A stretch of DNA of 64,000 bases from Thermocrispum agreste DSM 44070. GTDB lineage: Bacteria; Actinomycetota; Actinomycetes; Mycobacteriales; Pseudonocardiaceae. Shown piece by piece: positions 1 to 7,274 of the stretch (position 1 is its first letter; every line of letters starts with the position of its first letter). Both the position numbers and the translations under genes were made by a program. Where the stretch lies: NCBI RefSeq assembly GCF_000427905.1, contig NZ_ATYX01000006.1, positions 1-64,000 on the forward strand, read 5' to 3'. Under the pieces are notes generated by a model that was given only the letters and a program-made list of their open reading frames with translations, was not told the origin of the DNA and searched no databases.

Positions 1-250
1 CAAGCCTGGCACCACCGCCTCCGGTCAGGCAGAGAGGTTGCGGCCTTGACACGAGGCGGTCGAGACGCACCAGGCCGACGGGGAGAACCCTTCATGGAGC
101 CCCCTCAAAGTCAAGATCACCGCCACGCTTTACCCCCAGGAATCAACGACAAGAAACCCCAACGAACCACCATCAGCGCCTGTTCGAGATCGTGATTCAG
201 CGAGGTCACGACGGGTGATGGGGCTCAACGCGAGACGTTGAGAAGGATCA
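1..250. other. No recognisable gene
   Basis: I see no credible coding region here. Peptides readable on the minus strand toward the tRNA fragment contain the TCDQE/DSNLRP type of words that arise when tRNA T-arms are translated antisense, so they are artefacts. The stretch may be the decayed edge of an element that once integrated at the adjacent tRNA end. Confidence 0.4.
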
Positions 251-295
251 TGGACTAATCTCTTGGTCGCAGGTTCGAGTCCTGCCGGGGGCGCA
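251..295 (+). tRNA. 3' part of a tRNA gene (truncated; possible attachment-site remnant)
   Basis: A perfect T-arm is visible: stem GCAGG (269-273) with CCTGC (281-285) around the seven-base loop TTCGAGT. It is followed by a seven-base acceptor half CGGGGGC (286-292), G and CA. The matching 5' acceptor strand (GCCCCCG) and D-arm are absent at the required distance upstream, so only the variable loop, T-arm and acceptor end remain. A 3' tRNA end alone is the usual footprint of a tyrosine-recombinase attachment site; an integrative element or deletion may have ended here. The amino-acid identity cannot be assigned because the anticodon arm is not intact. Confidence 0.7.
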
Positions 296-428
296 GTTTG
301 ACGATCGGACGCCGCGCCGGATGTGTCCCGTGGGCCGCGAGTGTCGGTTGACATTTCTTGGGACTGCTGCACGGATAGGTGACATCCGATCTGCGTCGAT
401 GTGTGTCGGCGCTGGAAGGATGTGCATC

Positions 429-722
429 ATGCCGAAGGCGTTTTCCAAGGAGTTTCGCGAGGACGTGATCCGGGTCTACCGGGAGTCCGATGCCTCGATG
501 GCCCAGGTCGTCAAGGACTTCGGTATCTCGCCGTCGTGCTTGAAGCGCTGGCTGGCGATCGACGAGAAGGACTCGGCCCGGTCGTCTCGCTCGCCACAGT
601 CGGGTAGCGAGTCCGACGCGCTGCGGGAGGCGAACAAGCGGATCAAGCTGCTCGAGCAGGAGAACGAGGTCCTGCGCCGCGCTGCGGCCTATCTGTCGCA
701 GGCTCATCTGCCGGGAGAATGA
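429..722 (+). CDS. IS3-family transposase OrfA
   Basis: This 97-residue protein starts MPKAFSKEF and carries an N-terminal helix-turn-helix (residues about 5-45, with SPSCLKRWL in the recognition region). A leucine-zipper segment follows (about 65-90, LREANKRIKLLEQENEVL). In IS3 elements OrfA binds the terminal repeats and supplies the N-terminus of the OrfAB fusion. The ATG at 429 is preferred over the longer reading from 321 because family members begin at this point. The stop overlaps orfB as ATGATG/TGA at 719-722. Confidence 0.9.
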   Translation: MPKAFSKEFREDVIRVYRESDASMAQVVKDFGISPSCLKRWLAIDEKDSARSSRSPQSGSESDALREANKRIKLLEQENEVLRRAAAYLSQAHLPGE

Positions 723-1399
723 TGTACCCGCTCGTCCGCGAGCTGGCCGACGACGGGGTTCCCGTCACGGTGACGTGCCGGGTGCTCAAGATCGCCCGCC
801 AGCCCTACGACCGCTGGCTCTCCAAGCCGGTGACCGACGCCGAACTGGCTGCGGCCTACCGGGCCAACGCGTTGTTCGACGCTCACCGCGAGGACCCCGA
901 GTTCGGCTACCGGTTCCTGGTCGACGAAGCCAGGGAAGCCGGTGAGTCGATGGCAGAGCGGACCGCGTGGAGGATCTGCTCCGACCTGGGCTGGTGGTCA
1001 GCGTTCGGGAAGAGGCGCGGCCGCAACGGTAAGAAGCCAGGCCCGCCGGTCCACGACGACCTGGTGATGCGGAACTTCACCGCCGGCGCCCCGAACCGGC
1101 TGTGGCTGGCCGACATCACCGAGCACTGGACCCGTGAAGGCAAGCTCTACCTCTGCGCGATCAAGGACGTCTACTCCAACCGGATCGTCGGCTACTCGAT
1201 CGACTCACGGATGAAGTCGCGGATCGCGGTCGCTGCACTCGACAACGCCGTCGCTCGCCGCCGCGCTGAGGGTGTGGACGTGGCTGGTTGTGTCCTGCAC
1301 ACCGACCGCGGGTCGCAGTTCCGGTCCAGGAAGCTGGTCCACCAGCTCAATCGTCACGACATGGCCGGATCGATGGGTCGCGTCGGCGCGGCCGCCGAC
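719..1399 (+). pseudogene. IS3-family transposase OrfB, 5' part (split by IS110 insertion)
   Basis: This is the rve-type integrase domain. The first Asp lies in WLADITEH and the second in LHTDRGSQF. The catalytic Glu is missing here because the reading frame is broken after GRVGAAAD (codon ending 1399). The continuation, with the Glu in MESFF, resumes at 2713. Downstream of 1399 the frame reads into the IS110 left end and stops at 1432, giving a truncated product without the third catalytic residue. Confidence 0.9.
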
Positions 1400-1417
1400 T
1401 GTGAGACTGTCGATCGT

Positions 1418-1590
1418 CTCCTGGCGGCCTGACTCTTGCTGACGACTGACCCCGAAGTCTGGGTGTCCTGGCTGTTGATCTGTCGTCCGCCAGGAGGCGC
1501 TTCACCCACGGTGCTGGCCGGGCGGGCGTGACCTCATAGGAGCCTGATCGCAACAGTCTCATCACAGTCCCGTCCACCCGACCGGCCAGC
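1418..1590 (+). ncRNA. Candidate IS110 bridge RNA
   Basis: Two large stem-loops occupy the non-coding left end. Stem one pairs CTCCTGGCGG (1418-1427) with CCGCCAGGAG (1487-1496). Its loop contains CGACTG (1443-1448), identical to the left junction 1396-1401, and GTTGAT (1474-1479), the complement of the right junction 2710-2715. Stem two pairs GCTGGCCGG (1513-1521) with CCGGCCAGC (1582-1590). Its loop holds ATAGGAGC (1536-1543), identical to the right end, and ACAGTCTCA (1553-1561), complementary to the left end. This same-strand/complement arrangement matches the target-binding and donor-binding loops described for IS621-type bridge RNAs. RNA ends are not determined. Confidence 0.7.
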
Positions 1591-1619
1591 GTCACTCACC
1601 GGTTGGAAAGGCAAGCACT

Positions 1620-2696
1620 ATGAGCATGCAACAGGTTCCGTCGCACCGTCGAGTCGTTGTCGGTGTCGACACTCACAAGTACGTCCACGTCGCGGTCGCG
1701 ATCGATGACCTTGGCACCGTCTTGGATGACCGATCCTTTGTCGCCGATGCTGGCGGCTATGCCCAGTTGATCGACTGGGCGGCCTCGTTCGGCGGGAAAC
1801 TGATCTTCGGGATCGAAGGCACAGGATCGTATGGCGCAGGCCTGGCTGGCGCGGTCCGCCGCCGCGGGATCGGCGCAATGGAAGTAGTCCGCACCGACCG
1901 GCGTGACCGACGGCTGCGCGGGAAATCCGACACCATCGATGCTGAGAACGCCGCCAAAGCAGTTCTCGCCGGCTTGGCCACTGCGGTCCCGAAGTCCGCC
2001 GATGGCGTGGTCGAGATGATCCGGCAGGTCAAGGTCGCCAAGGACATCGCCGTCAAGGCTCGAACGTCAGCGATGATCAGCCTCAAACAGGTCATTGTGA
2101 ATGCGCCCGACGCCCTGCGCCAAGAGCTGCAACCGTTGTCGAAGATGGCGTTGATCAACCGCTGCGCCGGACTGCGTCCGGGGCGAGTCACGACCGTTGC
2201 TGCTGCCACGAAGCATACGCTGCGCGCGATTGCCCGACGTTGGCAGCAACTCAACGCCGAGATCGTCGAGCACGAGAAGATCCTGACCGACCTCACCTCC
2301 TCGGCTGCCCCCGAGTTGGCGAAGGCATTCGCCGTCGGTCCTGACACCGCCGCGGAAATGCTCATCGTGGCCGGTGACAACCCCGAACGAGTCCGGTCCG
2401 AAGCCGCGTTCGCCAGACTCTGTGGCGTCGCACCAATCCCGGCATCGTCGGGAATGACGACACGGCACCGGCTCAACCGTGGCGGTCACCGCCAGGCCAA
2501 CGCAGCGCTCTACCGGGTCGTGATCGTGCGGATGCAGCACCACGAACCGACCAAGGCTTACGTCGCCAGACGGACCGCAGAAGGCAAGACCAAAGCCGAG
2601 ATCATCCGCTGCCTCAAACGGCTCCTCGCCCGCGAGCTCTGGGCGGCGATGCGCCCCATCCGCGACGCCCGTCAGAGCCTCCCGAACGCTGCTTGA
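1620..2696 (+). CDS. IS110-family transposase (DEDD recombinase)
   Basis: The 358-residue protein has the RuvC-like N-terminal domain with acidic residues in VGVDTHKY (about residue 17), GIEGTGSYG (about 63) and the SDTIDAENAAKA segment (about 103-108). The C-terminal transposase-20 domain carries LCGVAPIPASSG, which includes the serine thought to attack DNA in this family. GGAAAGG lies about 10 bases before ATG 1620. The gene looks intact, so the element may still be mobile together with its left-end RNA. Confidence 0.95.
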   Translation: MSMQQVPSHRRVVVGVDTHKYVHVAVAIDDLGTVLDDRSFVADAGGYAQLIDWAASFGGKLIFGIEGTGSYGAGLAGAVRRRGIGAMEVVRTDRRDRRLRGKSDTIDAENAAKAVLAGLATAVPKSADGVVEMIRQVKVAKDIAVKARTSAMISLKQVIVNAPDALRQELQPLSKMALINRCAGLRPGRVTTVAAATKHTLRAIARRWQQLNAEIVEHEKILTDLTSSAAPELAKAFAVGPDTAAEMLIVAGDNPERVRSEAAFARLCGVAPIPASSGMTTRHRLNRGGHRQANAALYRVVIVRMQHHEPTKAYVARRTAEGKTKAEIIRCLKRLLARELWAAMRPIRDARQSLPNAA

Positions 2697-2712
2697 CGGA
2701 TATAGGAGCATC

Positions 2713-2919
2713 AACGCCGCGATGGAGTCGTTCTTCTCGCTGCTGCAGAAGAACGTCCTCGACCGCCGCGTCTGGAACACCCGCGAGGAGCTACGAATCG
2801 CAATCGTCGCCTGGATCGAACGGACCTATCACCGACGCCGTCGCCAAGCCGCTCTCGGGCGGTTGACCCCGGTCGAATACGAGCTGATCATGAAGCCCGC
2901 TGCCATCCAGGCGGCCTAA
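2713..2919 (+). pseudogene. IS3-family transposase OrfB, 3' part
   Basis: The reading resumes at AAC 2713 with NAAMESFFSLLQKNVLD, containing the third catalytic residue (Glu of MESF). It runs to TAA 2917-2919 through the conserved RTYHRRRRQAALG segment. It has no start of its own and is the tail displaced from 719-1399 by the IS110 insertion. Confidence 0.9.
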
Positions 2920-3136
2920 CCGAAACTGTCACCAGTTCGTGCATCAGACCCTCTCGTCGGCAAGTCCAAGTCAACCTTTAGGGCGATGGTGATCATGGCC
3001 AGATCGAAGTAAAGCCTCACGATGGTCTTGTGGCGGGACCCAAAAGAATACTCTAAATTTGTAGGTTTTCCAGTTCCGGACACAGGGGCGCAGCACCTAT
3101 AGTCGGGATCACATCGACCGACCCGAGGAGCCCTAG

Positions 3137-4183
3137 TTGTCGAAGACCCGAGTGTCGCTAGTAGGTCTGGGTGCGACAGGCGTTGCCATAGGGAACGTGC
3201 TCGCGCGGCGGACGGACGTCAGTCTCCAGGGTGGCGCGGACCCCCGGCCTGGTCTGGTGGGGAAAGACCTTGGCTCCGTGCTTGGCGGCCAGGAGCTCGG
3301 TGTGACCGTGGTAGACAGCTCCGCCTGCTTGCCGGATGCCGATGTTGCGGTAGTTGCGACAAGCTCGATGCTCGACGTCGTCGCCGAGACGGTCGCGCCG
3401 CTATTGGAGCGGGGCATCAACGTGGTGAGTATCTGCGAGGAGCTGGCCTACCCGCATGTCAGTCATCCTCGGCTGGCTCGCCAGCTCGACGAACTGGCGC
3501 GGCAAAATGGCGTCACGTTGCTCGGCACCGGGGCCAACCCCGGGATCATCATGGATACATTGCCGTTATTGCTGAGCTCGATGACCCAACAGGCTCACCG
3601 AGTCGTGATCCGTCGCAGCGCAGACATGTCCAGGTACGGGGCTATCCTCGAAAAGTTTGGGCTAGGGCTGACCCCCGAGCAGTTTGGACTCGCGCAGCGT
3701 CGCGGCGCGGTCATCGGACACGTCGGCTTCGAGCAGTCCGTGGCAGCGCTGGGATCTGGGCTGGGATGGCGTCTCGATGAGATCGAGGTCGACGATGTTC
3801 GACCTGTGCGCATCACCGACCGAGCCCGGCACGGTCGGCATCGATCGCTCGAGGCGGGCACGGTCTCCGCGGTCCGGCACGCCGCCCGCGGGCTCATAGC
3901 CGACCGCGTGGTCATCGACCTTGAGATCAACTTCGGCTTCTTCGAGCCCGGCGACGATATCGCTCCGGGCGATCGCTGCCGCATTGAAGGCGTCGACCAG
4001 AACATCGAGGTCGTCGCGACCGCCGGCTACGAAAGCCACCTCAGCACGGTTGCGGTCACTGCCAATGTTGTCACTGCCGTTGCCGAAGCCCCACCGGGGC
4101 TCCGCAGCATGGCGGAGCTCCCGGTGGTCAGCTTCGCCTCCAGAGGCGCGTGGACCAACGTAGATCAACGAGGCCAGCCATGA
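3137..4183 (+). CDS. 2,4-diaminopentanoate dehydrogenase-like NAD(P)-dependent oxidoreductase
   Basis: This 348-residue protein has an N-terminal Rossmann motif GLGATG (10-15), as in dihydrodipicolinate-reductase-fold enzymes. A TGANPGIIMD segment near 130-140 resembles the TGxNPG motif of the Ord/2,4-diaminopentanoate dehydrogenase family, which oxidatively deaminates a 2,4-diamino acid. TTG 3137 is chosen as start because GAGGAG (3125-3130) stands six bases upstream and the Rossmann fold begins directly after it. It overlaps the next gene by ATGA and opens the cluster. A second, divergent paralog lies at 12259. The true substrate is not shown by sequence; an amino-acid or diamine substrate is inferred. 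Confidence 0.75.
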   Translation: MSKTRVSLVGLGATGVAIGNVLARRTDVSLQGGADPRPGLVGKDLGSVLGGQELGVTVVDSSACLPDADVAVVATSSMLDVVAETVAPLLERGINVVSICEELAYPHVSHPRLARQLDELARQNGVTLLGTGANPGIIMDTLPLLLSSMTQQAHRVVIRRSADMSRYGAILEKFGLGLTPEQFGLAQRRGAVIGHVGFEQSVAALGSGLGWRLDEIEVDDVRPVRITDRARHGRHRSLEAGTVSAVRHAARGLIADRVVIDLEINFGFFEPGDDIAPGDRCRIEGVDQNIEVVATAGYESHLSTVAVTANVVTAVAEAPPGLRSMAELPVVSFASRGAWTNVDQRGQP

Positions 4184-5739
4184 TGCACAATTCTGAGCCG
4201 CTCACGCCAACCGCATTTCTGACCCGCTCCGCGGCCGTGTACCCGGAGCGCACCGCCATCGTGGATGATGACCGGCAGTTCAGTTACGCCGAACTGCTTG
4301 ACCGGACACAGCGGCTGGCCGGTGCGTTACAGGCGCTTGGCCTGGGCCCAGGCGATCGAGTGGCAGTGCTGGCGCCGAACCGGCATCAGATGCTCGAAGC
4401 CCACTACGGTGTCCCATTCGCAAGCGGCGTGCTCGTGACATTGAACGTCCGGCTTAGTGCCGCCGAGATCGCCTACATCCTCGACCATTCCGGGGCTCGA
4501 TTCCTGATCTTCAGCCCGGATCTGAAAACCCTTGCCGAGGCTGCCCTGAGTCAAGCCTCGGTAAAGCCTGTGACCTTGATGTGCGGCCCGGAATATGAGG
4601 AAGCGCTCCGATCAGCCAAGCCGTACCAAGCAAACGTCGCCGACGAGCATGCAGCCCTGGCGATTAACTACACCAGCGGAACGACCGGGCGCCCGAAAGG
4701 CGTCGTGTACACGCATCGCGGGGCATACTTGCAGTCCCTGGCGATGGCTTATCACAGCCGGATGACGGGTCAATCCGTCTATTTGTGGACTTTGCCTATG
4801 TTCCACTGCAACGGCTGGTGTTTCACCTGGGCGGTGACGGCCGCCGGCGCGCGGCACGTGTGCCTGCCCCGAGCCGAGGAATCAGCTATTTGGGCCGCCA
4901 TCGAACAGCAGGGCGTGACGCATTTGTGCGCGGCTCCGACCGTATTGTCGAGCATCGTCTTCTCCGAGCGCGCCCAGGCCGTCCCAGTGTGGATCGGGAC
5001 GGGCGGCGCGCCGCCCTCGCCGTCGTTGCTCGGTCGCGCGCGTGAGTTGCGTTTCGACGTGACCCACCTATACGGCATGACCGAGACGTATGGCCCCATC
5101 GTCATCAACGACTGGCATCCGGAGTGGGATTCGTTGCCCGAGCAGGTGCGGAACAAGCTCAACGCGAGGCAGGGTGTGGGCAACATCGTGGCCCAGCAGG
5201 TCCGGGTAGTTGACCAAGACGGCACAGAGATCACCCCCGATGGCACCACACTCGGAGAGATCGCCGTTCGCGGCAACAATGTCATGGCTGGCTACTTTCG
5301 CGACGAAGTAGCAACCGCGGCAGCGATACCGGACGGCTGGCTCCGTACTGGTGACCTCGCCGTTCGCTATCCCGACGGCTACATCGAGATACGCGACCGA
5401 GCCAAGGACCTCATCATCTCCGGCGGTGAGAACATCTCGTCGGTCGAAGTGGAGCAGGCCCTTGCAGAGCATCCAGCTGTTCTGGAAGCAGCGGTCGTCC
5501 CGATGCCGCACCCCCGATGGGGTGAACGTCCCGCCGCGGTCGTCACGCTGAGACCGGGCATGCGGGCTGCCGAAGACGAGTTGCGGGCACATTTGGCCGC
5601 CCGGCTGGCCGGATTCAAGATTCCGGACCTATTCCGCTTTGCGGATCTTCCCAAGACAGCCACCGGAAAAATTAAAAAATTCCTTCTGAAAGAGCAGTTC
5701 GCACGATTCCCAAATGATCTCCCTGGCGGGAACGCCTAG
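4180..5739 (+). CDS. Acyl-CoA synthetase (AMP-forming)
   Basis: A 519-residue ANL-superfamily enzyme that should activate a carboxylic acid through an acyl-adenylate to its CoA thioester. The phosphate-binding loop YTSGTTGRPKG is at about 164-174, LYGMTE at 297-302, GWLRTGD near 386, DRAKDLIISGGENI near 406 and the C-terminal adenylation lysine in ATGKIKK near 495. The closest general type is medium-chain/aryl acyl-CoA synthetase (PMFHCNGW is typical). It is translationally coupled to the upstream dehydrogenase (four-base overlap), suggesting that the acid arises from the amine-oxidation product. Confidence 0.9.
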   Translation: MMHNSEPLTPTAFLTRSAAVYPERTAIVDDDRQFSYAELLDRTQRLAGALQALGLGPGDRVAVLAPNRHQMLEAHYGVPFASGVLVTLNVRLSAAEIAYILDHSGARFLIFSPDLKTLAEAALSQASVKPVTLMCGPEYEEALRSAKPYQANVADEHAALAINYTSGTTGRPKGVVYTHRGAYLQSLAMAYHSRMTGQSVYLWTLPMFHCNGWCFTWAVTAAGARHVCLPRAEESAIWAAIEQQGVTHLCAAPTVLSSIVFSERAQAVPVWIGTGGAPPSPSLLGRARELRFDVTHLYGMTETYGPIVINDWHPEWDSLPEQVRNKLNARQGVGNIVAQQVRVVDQDGTEITPDGTTLGEIAVRGNNVMAGYFRDEVATAAAIPDGWLRTGDLAVRYPDGYIEIRDRAKDLIISGGENISSVEVEQALAEHPAVLEAAVVPMPHPRWGERPAAVVTLRPGMRAAEDELRAHLAARLAGFKIPDLFRFADLPKTATGKIKKFLLKEQFARFPNDLPGGNA

Positions 5740-5745
5740 AAATAC

Positions 5746-5781
5746 CGCGATATCGCGCTGGCGATAGGTGATCGGATCACC
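5746..5781. promoter_or_regulatory. Two inverted repeats before the aldehyde dehydrogenase gene
   Basis: CGCGATATCGCG (5746-5757) is a perfect 12-bp palindrome. GGTGATCGGATCACC (5767-5781) is a perfect inverted repeat of seven-base arms around one G. Both sit in the 101-bp gap upstream of ATG 5841. They could be operators for the PucR or GntR protein encoded at the end of the cluster; this is inference. Confidence 0.4.
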
Positions 5782-5840
5782 AACCCTCCGCGCAACCAAG
5801 TAACGGTCGAGTCATCCCGAAACTGACCGCAGGAGAAAAT

Positions 5841-7274
5841 ATGTCGAGCACGCTTGAGTTCAAAACAAAGAACCTCGTCAATGGCTTGCTAATAGACGCC
5901 GCCGATGGTAGGAAGCTCGATGTCGTCGAGCCCGCCACCGAAAAAGTTCTAGCGCAAGTTCCGGCCAGCGGCCCGGATGATGTCGAAGCTGCCGTCCAGG
6001 CCGCCCAGGAAGCATTTCGCGTATGGCGCCGAACCACTCCAGGCGAGCGTGCAGAAATGCTGCTGGCGCTTGCCGATGCGATCGATGCCCACGCGGAGCA
6101 CTTGGCCATTCTGGAATCGCGCAATGTTGGCAAGCCACTACCGGTAGCGCGTGAGGAGATTCCTTTCGTCGCGGACAATATACGTTTCTTCGCCGGCGCG
6201 GCCAGGTGCTTGGAAGGCCGCTCGGGTGGTGAGTACCTGGCCGGCTACGAGTCGTACATCCGTCGTGAGCCAATCGGCGTGGTAGCCGGAATCGCTCCGT
6301 GGAACTACCCATTGCTGATGGCCGCGTGGAAGTTCGCCCCAGCGCTCGCGGCGGGCAACTGCAGCGTGCTCAAGCCAGCCCGATCTACCCCGCTTACCGC
6401 GCTGTACTTGGCGCACCTCGCCGCGGACATCTTCCCTCCCGGAGTGTTCAATGTGCTCGCTGGCAGCGCGTCCGACATGGGCGACAGTCTGGTGTCCGAC
6501 CCGCGAATCGGAATGATCTCCATCACTGGAGACACCGCGACGGGAATGAACATCGCGCGAGTCGCGGCGCAGAACGTGACCAAGGTTCACCTTGAACTGG
6601 GCGGCAAGGCCCCTGTCGTGGTGCTCGACGATGCCGACGTCGAAGCAGTGGTCGAGGCCGTGAAGGTCGCGGGATACGTCAACTCGGGTCAGGACTGCAC
6701 CGCTGCTTGTCGCATCATCGCCACACCGGGCATCTACGACCAGCTGGTCGAGGCCCTGGTGCCGGCTGTTCAGGGGCTCACTGTGGGTGATCCTGCCGAA
6801 ACCGAAGAGCTTGACCTTGGCCCAGTCATCTCGGCCGGACACAGGGACGCCATCCTCAATTTCCTGGACGAAACCGATGGCGAGGTGGTCACCGGCGGCA
6901 GATCCCAGCGGGCCACCGGTTACTTCGTTGAACCGGCCGTAGTGGTTAATCCCAGCCAAGATGATCGCCTGGTCCAAAAAGAGGTGTTCGGCCCGGTCGT
7001 CTCCGTCCAGCGGGCGAACGATGCGGACCAGGCATTCGAGTGGGCGAACGATGTCGAGTTCGGATTGGCGTCGTCGGTCTGGACTCGGGATCTCTCGTCC
7101 GCGCACCGGGCCATTCGAGAACTTGAATTCGGCTGCGTGTGGGTCAACGACCACTTGCCGGTAGTCGCGGAGATGCCGCACGGCGGCTTCAAGAAGTCGG
7201 GCTACGGCAAGGACATGTCGATGTACGGCCTAGAGGACTACACCCGCATCAAACACGTCATGACCAAGGCCTGA
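5841..7274 (+). CDS. NAD-dependent aldehyde dehydrogenase, aminobutyraldehyde/betaine-aldehyde type
   Basis: The 477-residue protein matches ALDH length. It shows PWNYP (about 153), ELGGKAP with the general-base Glu (about 252) and the nucleophile Cys in GQDCTAACR (about 283). The GQDCTA context and the ending are typical of gamma-aminobutyraldehyde dehydrogenases (PatD/YdcW group) and betaine-aldehyde dehydrogenases, so an amino- or ammonio-aldehyde is the likely substrate, oxidised to its acid with NAD+. GGAGAAAAT precedes ATG 5841. In this cluster it would supply the acid for the CoA ligase encoded just upstream. Confidence 0.85.
   Translation: MSSTLEFKTKNLVNGLLIDAADGRKLDVVEPATEKVLAQVPASGPDDVEAAVQAAQEAFRVWRRTTPGERAEMLLALADAIDAHAEHLAILESRNVGKPLPVAREEIPFVADNIRFFAGAARCLEGRSGGEYLAGYESYIRREPIGVVAGIAPWNYPLLMAAWKFAPALAAGNCSVLKPARSTPLTALYLAHLAADIFPPGVFNVLAGSASDMGDSLVSDPRIGMISITGDTATGMNIARVAAQNVTKVHLELGGKAPVVVLDDADVEAVVEAVKVAGYVNSGQDCTAACRIIATPGIYDQLVEALVPAVQGLTVGDPAETEELDLGPVISAGHRDAILNFLDETDGEVVTGGRSQRATGYFVEPAVVVNPSQDDRLVQKEVFGPVVSVQRANDADQAFEWANDVEFGLASSVWTRDLSSAHRAIRELEFGCVWVNDHLPVVAEMPHGGFKKSGYGKDMSMYGLEDYTRIKHVMTKA

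What the first reader, a model, noticed from the sequence alone, without database searches (positions are those of the whole stretch)
1400..1619. Bridge-RNA-like guide structure read directly from the IS110 left end
Two stem-loops carry four short guides. ATAGGAGC (1536-1543) equals the right end at 2702-2709. ACAGTCTCA (1553-1561) is the complement of the left end at 1402-1410. CGACTG (1443-1448) equals the left target junction (1396-1401). GTTGAT (1474-1479) is the complement of the right junction (2710-2715). The donor half is strong and the target half is short, but both have the orientation known from IS621. The insertion in a known IS3 codon context gives the pre-insertion target exactly.
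Basis: partly seen in the sequence, partly recalled or inferred. Interest (0 to 1): 0.7.

Follow-up and report, generated by a model that had tools for sequence, protein, structure and literature searches.

The report
RNA-guided transposon splitting another transposon

Summary
The structure is real: an IS110-family element (corrected ends 1400-2712, 1313 bp, no target duplication) encodes a two-hairpin bridge RNA upstream of its transposase. The hairpins covary in relatives (17 of 29 pairs doubly changed, 0 of 500 shuffles). Guides track targets: left guides match their own flank at 354 of 486 positions (permuted mean 219, 0 of 10,000), right guides at 240 of 347 (mean 132, 0 of 10,000).

Corrections: the target is GAC^AACGC, not CGACTG|ATCAAC. 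TG (1400-1401) and ATC (2710-2712) belong to the element. The right donor guide is 1562-1567, not 1553-1561. The insertion lies just before the catalytic Glu of DD(35)E.

Closest known: ISEc21 (43.6% Tnp identity), which targets IS3's second catalytic D. Variant features: no shared CT core, no room for a 5' stem-loop. In passing: ISEc21-type relatives carry two competing 5' arms with different left guides; single-guide elements hit their guide's codon class 19 of 19, dual ones split 10/9.

The parts
321..722 (+). IS3-type orfA of the interrupted host element (open frame; HTH_Tnp_1)
   Evidence: PF01527 E 2e-7
719..1399 (+). 5' part of interrupted IS3-type orfB, up to the codon GAC; left target flank GCCGCCGAC 1391-1399
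   Evidence: PF00665 rve E 4.5e-19, NF033516 transpos_IS3 162.6 bits against cut-off 160; these scans used 719-1429, which runs 30 bases into the element
1400..2712 (+). IS110-family element, corrected ends, 1313 bp, no target duplication
   Evidence: reading frame and uninterrupted homologues; in relatives with GAT targets the left T is the target's and the right C the element's
1415..1499 (+). target-binding hairpin (TBL)
   Evidence: consensus structure with 14 of 17 outer-stem pairs doubly changed; single fold z -2.74
1438..1446 (+). left target guide (LTG) GCTGACGAC, 7 of 9 identical to left flank GCCGCCGAC
1471..1477 (+). right target guide GC[T]GTTG; GTTG is the complement of CAAC, and with one bulged T also of the following GC
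   Evidence: the extra T is present in the closest relatives only
1478..1479 (+). handshake AT of the target loop, complementary to element bases AT 2710-2711
   Evidence: right-end position -2 matches 57 of 58, position -3 45 of 58 nonredundant loci
1513..1590 (+). donor-binding hairpin (DBL); conserved inner helices 1522-1573
1536..1543 (+). left donor guide ATAGGAGC
   Evidence: equals 2702-2709; ATAGGGGC partners ATAGGGGC in relatives
1562..1567 (+). right donor guide TCACAG, complement of C|TGTGA 1399-1404
   Evidence: left end TGTCA with TGACA and TGCGA with TCGCA in relatives
1568..1569 (+). handshake TC of the donor loop, complementary to target GA 1397-1398
   Evidence: 105 of 114 positions, permuted mean 89, 0 of 5000
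1620..2696 (+). IS110-family transposase, 358 aa
   Evidence: PF01548 and PF02371, NF033542 147.2 bits against cut-off 140
2693..2698 (+). TTGACG, candidate -35; in the circle 17 bases before GAGACT (1403-1408)
   Evidence: sequence; inference from IS621 and ISEc21 circle promoters
2713..2919 (+). 3' part of interrupted IS3-type orfB, N-A-A-M-E-S-F-F...

Best explanation
The left end of this IS110-family insertion sequence encodes a bridge RNA with two hairpins. [quoted passage not shown] In the second loop, LDG 1536-1543 pairs with the right end and RDG 1562-1567 with the left end of the element, brought together in an excised circle. The transposase exchanges top strands right after GAC in the target and after ATC in the element. 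Two 'handshake' dinucleotides (1478-1479, 1568-1569) pair with the strand that comes in from the other DNA. The guides are set to the codons D-N-A just upstream of the catalytic Glu of IS3-family DDE transposases, so one RNA can find many different IS3 elements. SHOWN here: anatomy, covariation, guide-target tracking, junction. INFERRED from ISEc21 and IS621: transcription of the RNA, binding to the transposase, circle intermediate, order of strand exchange.
For: IS110 Tnp. Hairpin covariation in 37 sequences: 88.7% of cells paired against 76.9% shuffled, covariation score 0.411 against 0.205, 0 of 500 shuffles; slid controls at most 53.6%. A second set of 21 more distant sequences gives the same layout. 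LTG 354 of 486 and RTG 240 of 347, each 0 of 10,000 permutations. Relatives retargeted to other genes carry matching guides: 9 of 9 LTG matches in L098, L102, L039, L045, L062, L084, L091, L085, L092; IS256-type target in L030/L031 and rve-type targets in L087/L088. Handshake covariation. Junction from codon frame and uninterrupted homologues. ISEc21, whose upstream RNA was shown to bind its transposase, to direct movement and to insert without duplication (sections 12 and 13 read), has the same guide layout and junction (L155, L156: CATAGCGAC|AGTAAT and CACAGCGAT|AGTAAT, guide CACAGCGAT).
Against: No RNA or activity data. The window's own LTG matches 7 of 9 only and its RTG needs a bulged T. 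Only one copy in its genome, so mobility here is not shown. Of 81 rows many are not transposase targets (for example L098, L102, L084, L091), so 'aimed at transposases' holds for subclades, not for the whole family. Some flanks match neither guide (L038 1 of 9, L047 2 of 9, L070 3 of 9, L095 3 of 9).
Confidence: 0.93

Rival explanations
1. Bridge RNA in the reader's register: target CGACTG|ATCAAC, element 1402-2709, right donor guide 1553-1561.
For: Exact string matches; in that register the four guides abut at both junctions; the RDG segment with a 3-nt bulge has a weak family-wide signal (140 against 122, 8 of 2000).
Against: The join gives a stop codon and needs 5 more gap positions against uninterrupted IS3 homologues. 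TG after GAC is not conserved in the guides. Right-end ATC/GTC follows the element's subfamily, not the target. 1553-1561 is not complementary to the left end in relatives.
Confidence: 0.03
2. Site preference comes from protein recognition of a conserved DNA motif; the hairpins are end-binding or regulatory structures and the matches coincidental.
For: Most close relatives share one site, so their guides and flanks are not independent.
Against: Relatives at other sites carry correspondingly changed guides for both target strands and in the handshake position; permutation 0 of 10,000.
Confidence: 0.02
3. Dead relic: a once functional bridge RNA now trapped in one site.
For: Single copy, LTG 7 of 9, no intact copy of this IS3 in the genome.
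Against: Intact 358-aa frame with both Pfam domains over cut-off, perfect LDG and RDG, very close relatives (87-91% Tnp identity) at several sites.
Confidence: 0.1

Closest known systems
ISEc21 (IS110 family) and its seekRNA, Siddiquee et al. 2024, PMC11187229 (passages; sections 12-13)
   Same: Homologous Tnp (43.6% over 346 aa), same upstream two-guide RNA layout, left guide 5' of right guide, no target duplication, target inside a conserved catalytic motif of IS3 transposases.
   Different: ISEc21 targets codons around the second D (H-S-D^Q/R-G-S-Q); the window element targets D^N-A-x-x-E. The passages I read describe the target half of the RNA; the donor half and handshake for this group come.
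IS621 bridge RNA, Durrant et al. 2024 PMC11208160 (passages) and Hiraizumi et al. 2024 PMC11208158 (passages)
   Same: Target loop then donor loop; LTG/LDG copy the top strand, RTG/RDG complement it; handshake positions; top strands cut just after the core.
   Different: IS621 has a CT core shared by target and donor and included in all four guides, and a 5' stem-loop; here only one base (C, or T in GAT targets) overlaps, the base before it differs between target and donor, and only 15 bases precede the target hairpin.
ISMch6 (L144)
   Same: Tnp 47.2% identical to the window's, 71.7% to ISEc21, same RNA family.
   Different: Carries two left-guide arms.

Membership tests
IS110 family | DEDD/RuvC N-domain and Transposase_20 C-domain | tested here: met
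   PF01548 63.2 bits, PF02371 59 bits, NF033542 147.2 against cut-off 140
IS110 family | G--P----SG motif (as given in PMC11187229) | tested here: met
   GVAPIPASSG in the translation
IS110 family | long noncoding region upstream of tnp | tested here: met
   220 nt 1400-1619 against 16 nt 2697-2712
IS110 family | no target duplication | tested here: met
IS1111 family | noncoding region downstream of tnp | tested here: not met
IS621-type bridge RNA | two hairpins with internal guide loops, conserved by covariation | tested here: met
IS621-type bridge RNA | guides track target and ends, LTG/RTG and LDG/RDG order | tested here: met
IS621-type bridge RNA | core dinucleotide common to target and donor, paired by all four guides | tested here: not met
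   target AC or AT, element TC; one-base overlap at most
IS621-type bridge RNA | 5' stem-loop before the target loop | tested here: not met
   target hairpin starts 15 bases after the element's end
IS621-type bridge RNA | RNA transcribed from the circle and bound by the recombinase | not testable with these tools
   only a promoter-like TTGACG-N17-GAGACT at the RE-LE junction
ISEc21 group | target at the IS3 second-D codons | tested here: not met
   window target is D^NAAME

The most novel reading that the evidence does not exclude
This IS110 lineage runs its bridge RNAs against the protein-level constraint of rival transposons: guides are set to codons of catalytic motifs (IS3 H-S-D^R-G-S and D^N-A-x-x-E; IS256 W-S-N^N-P-Q-E; rve N-G-K-V^E-R-F) and are re-set in evolution. 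In ISEc21-type relatives one RNA carries two alternative 5' arms, each with its own left guide (for example CACAGCGAT and CACTCTGAT, both encoding His-Ser-Asp with the two serine codon families), that compete for a single 3' arm with the right guide. One element thus has two target programs that cover synonymous codons no single guide could cover. The dual arm is in relatives, not in the window.
Probability: 0.6. Interest if true: 0.82.

Novelty: new variant of a known kind. Interest (0 to 1): 0.6.

Why it matters
It gives a large natural series in which the bridge-RNA rules can be read from sequence: position by position pairing, handshake bases, and an exchange point with no shared core dinucleotide, which is useful to anyone who reprograms such recombinases. 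It shows RNA-guided elements that parasitise other transposons by aiming at codons their hosts cannot easily change, and points to two-program bridge RNAs that can be tested directly.

Tried and rejected
Rfam scan of 1-6000 gave only a chance miRNA match: no curated family matched. Folding the whole 220-nt left end gave no signal (z -0.83); the hairpins had to be folded apart. No relative in viral contigs. Own genome holds one copy of the element and no second copy of the IS3 (one search also lists one 32-base match elsewhere), so within-genome comparison was impossible; the uninterrupted copies used are 74-79% identical homologues (L103-L105), not the same IS3. L106 was fetched as a fourth; it aligned only with many gaps (43 of 411) and was not used for the junction. 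My first ORF choice across junctions took wrong frames for some loci and was redone with phase 0. The first duplex script lost 4 of 18 dual elements to a regular expression and was repeated with all 18. Covariance-model building and structure prediction were not used.

Rows dropped before counts: 66 loci had usable LTG and flank, 54 after removal of identical pairs; RTG 66 and 58. In one search I dropped identical copies (for example L140 and L141 for L131), loci with no or cut left flank (L033, L055, L064), L144 (left end unresolved), and flanks that match neither guide (L038 and L136, dual; L047 and L070, single); those four are results against, or not explained by, the dual-guide reading. 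ISEc21 copies L155 and L156 (single guide, AGC class, AGC targets) came later and are not in the 19 of 19.

Full report
OBSERVATION. The element lies in an IS3-type orfB (rve; NF033516) and encodes a 358-aa IS110-family transposase. In shuffles of the left end the donor strings are rare (0.0002 and 0.0022), the six-base target strings are not (0.14 and 0.017), all four together 0 of 5000.

CORRECTED JUNCTION. Hence TG at 1400-1401 and ATC at 2710-2712 are element. In relatives inserted after GAT codons the left flank keeps the target's T while the right end keeps the element's C (L040, L037, L049, L039, L035, L044, L060, L062, L034 and others), so the element runs 1400-2712 and there is no duplication. 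Counting residues in the translation, 35 residues stand between the second D (H-T-D) and the E of M-E-S, the DD(35)E spacing; the junction lies four codons before that E. That this E is catalytic is recalled knowledge plus this spacing.

STRUCTURE. A profile of the window's left end, iterated, finds 83 stretches in the window's first 6000 bases and the 100 fetched loci searched with it. In 37 aligned sequences the consensus has 29 pairs, 17 doubly changed, 88.7% of cells paired, covariation score 0.411 against 0.205 in shuffles, 0 of 500; sliding the partner by 1 to 3 columns drops pairing to 54% or less. RNAalifold derived this structure from the same alignment, which favours it over slid versions. 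A separate set of 21 proteobacterial and Herbidospora sequences folds to the same layout, 14 of 41 pairs doubly changed.

GUIDE TRACKING. I located left junctions by the donor-loop segment and right junctions by the left donor guide, then compared the target guides, which had not been used. LTG against the nine bases of the left flank: 354 of 486 over 54 nonredundant pairs, permuted mean 219, maximum 256, 0 of 10,000. RTG against the first six bases of the right flank: 240 of 347 over 58, permuted mean 132, maximum 166, 0 of 10,000. Nine loci have 9 of 9 LTG matches. The window has 7 of 9. Pairing stops at the junction: LTG covers the flank up to C, RTG covers C and the right flank, and the two bases before C pair with the element's right end (AT or GT; 57 of 58 at the T). 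The last two letters of the donor-loop guide follow target bases -3 and -2 (105 of 114, permuted mean 89, 0 of 5000). These are the handshake positions described for IS621 (passages). In 43 of the 57 rows the target has GA there, so the handshake signal rests on the other 14 (listing); it also shares the circularity of the junction search.

TARGETS. In 21 of 81 rows the right flank reads N-[A/S]-x-x-E of an IS3 transposase; 16 more have H/N-x-D (or S-D at a cut end) on the left with [R/Q/K/N]-G on the right. L030 and L031 sit in W-S-N^N-P-Q-E-R-L-N-K-E of an IS256-type gene (PF00872 in L030), L087 and L088 in N-G-K-[V/I]^E-R-F-H-R-T-L (rve in L088). Of 20 left flanks scanned, 18 match rve (one, L012, under its curated cut-off), one Transposase_mut, one nothing. 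The rest of the 81 rows are cut contigs, duplicates or sites I could not name; several clearly lie elsewhere.

RELATION TO KNOWN SYSTEMS. ISEc21 (L155) is a homologue (43.6%) with the same RNA layout; Siddiquee et al. report that its upstream RNA co-purifies with the transposase, is needed for circle formation and movement, and that it inserts without duplication at IS3 second-D codons. The window element shares the mechanism by homology and differs in target. Against IS621 the CT core shared by all guides is tested and not met, and there is no room for a 5' stem-loop. So: works like a bridge RNA, member of the IS110 family and of the ISEc21-like lineage, variant of the IS621 scheme. My literature searches listed no paper on targeting of the IS3 Glu codons or on two left guides; subscription journals and preprints are not in that library, and supplements could not be read.

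IN PASSING: TWO LEFT GUIDES. In ISEc21-type relatives a second copy of the 5' arm stands upstream with its own left guide. Guides of one element differ at the second codon (AGC or TCT serine; or Asn-Thr against His-Ser). Targets of 19 single-guide insertions all have the codon-2 class of their guide; of 19 dual-guide insertions 10 fit only the main guide, 9 only the upstream guide, none neither; Fisher p 0.0011. Four loci whose flanks fit no guide were dropped before this count (L038, L136 dual; L047, L070 single). Both arms pair with the one 3' arm: mean -28.7 and -29.4 kcal/mol over 18 elements, better in sum with the own 3' arm than in any of 1000 permutations each, although the two arms are only 43% identical. 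Elements with a decayed or missing upstream guide (L039, L046, L049, L132-L135, L139, L060) hit only the main guide's class. Insertions of related elements are separate events but the elements are not independent, so the p value is a guide only.

Noticed in passing
L040, L037, L051, L042, L043, L041, L035, L045, L067, L131, L127, L130, L142, L144-L150, L038: Relatives of ISEc21 carry two alternative 5' arms with different left target guides for synonymous or alternative codons and one shared 3' arm; targets split between the two guides.
   Followed up: partly
L030, L031, L087, L088, L098, L102, L084, L085, L091, L092, L094, L036: Natural retargeting: target guides and handshake bases changed together with the insertion site, including IS256-type and rve transposase genes.
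   Followed up: partly
window 1473: An extra T splits the right guide (GC-T-GTTG) in the window and its closest relatives only; their IS3 targets still read AACGC.
   Followed up: no
L004-L008 against the window: Closest elements (87-91% Tnp identity) are in Georgenia and Microbacterium, whereas loci drawn from the window's own family match Pseudonocardia and Saccharothrix elements at lower identity: likely horizontal transfer.
   Followed up: no
plasmid collection: The bridge-RNA region of the Halomonas element has matches in 1311 plasmid records, mostly Klebsiella and Escherichia, so ISEc21-type elements are common on enterobacterial plasmids.
   Followed up: no
L012, L038, L136: One flank is not the expected target, which suggests adjacent deletions or rearrangements at the element's end.
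   Followed up: no
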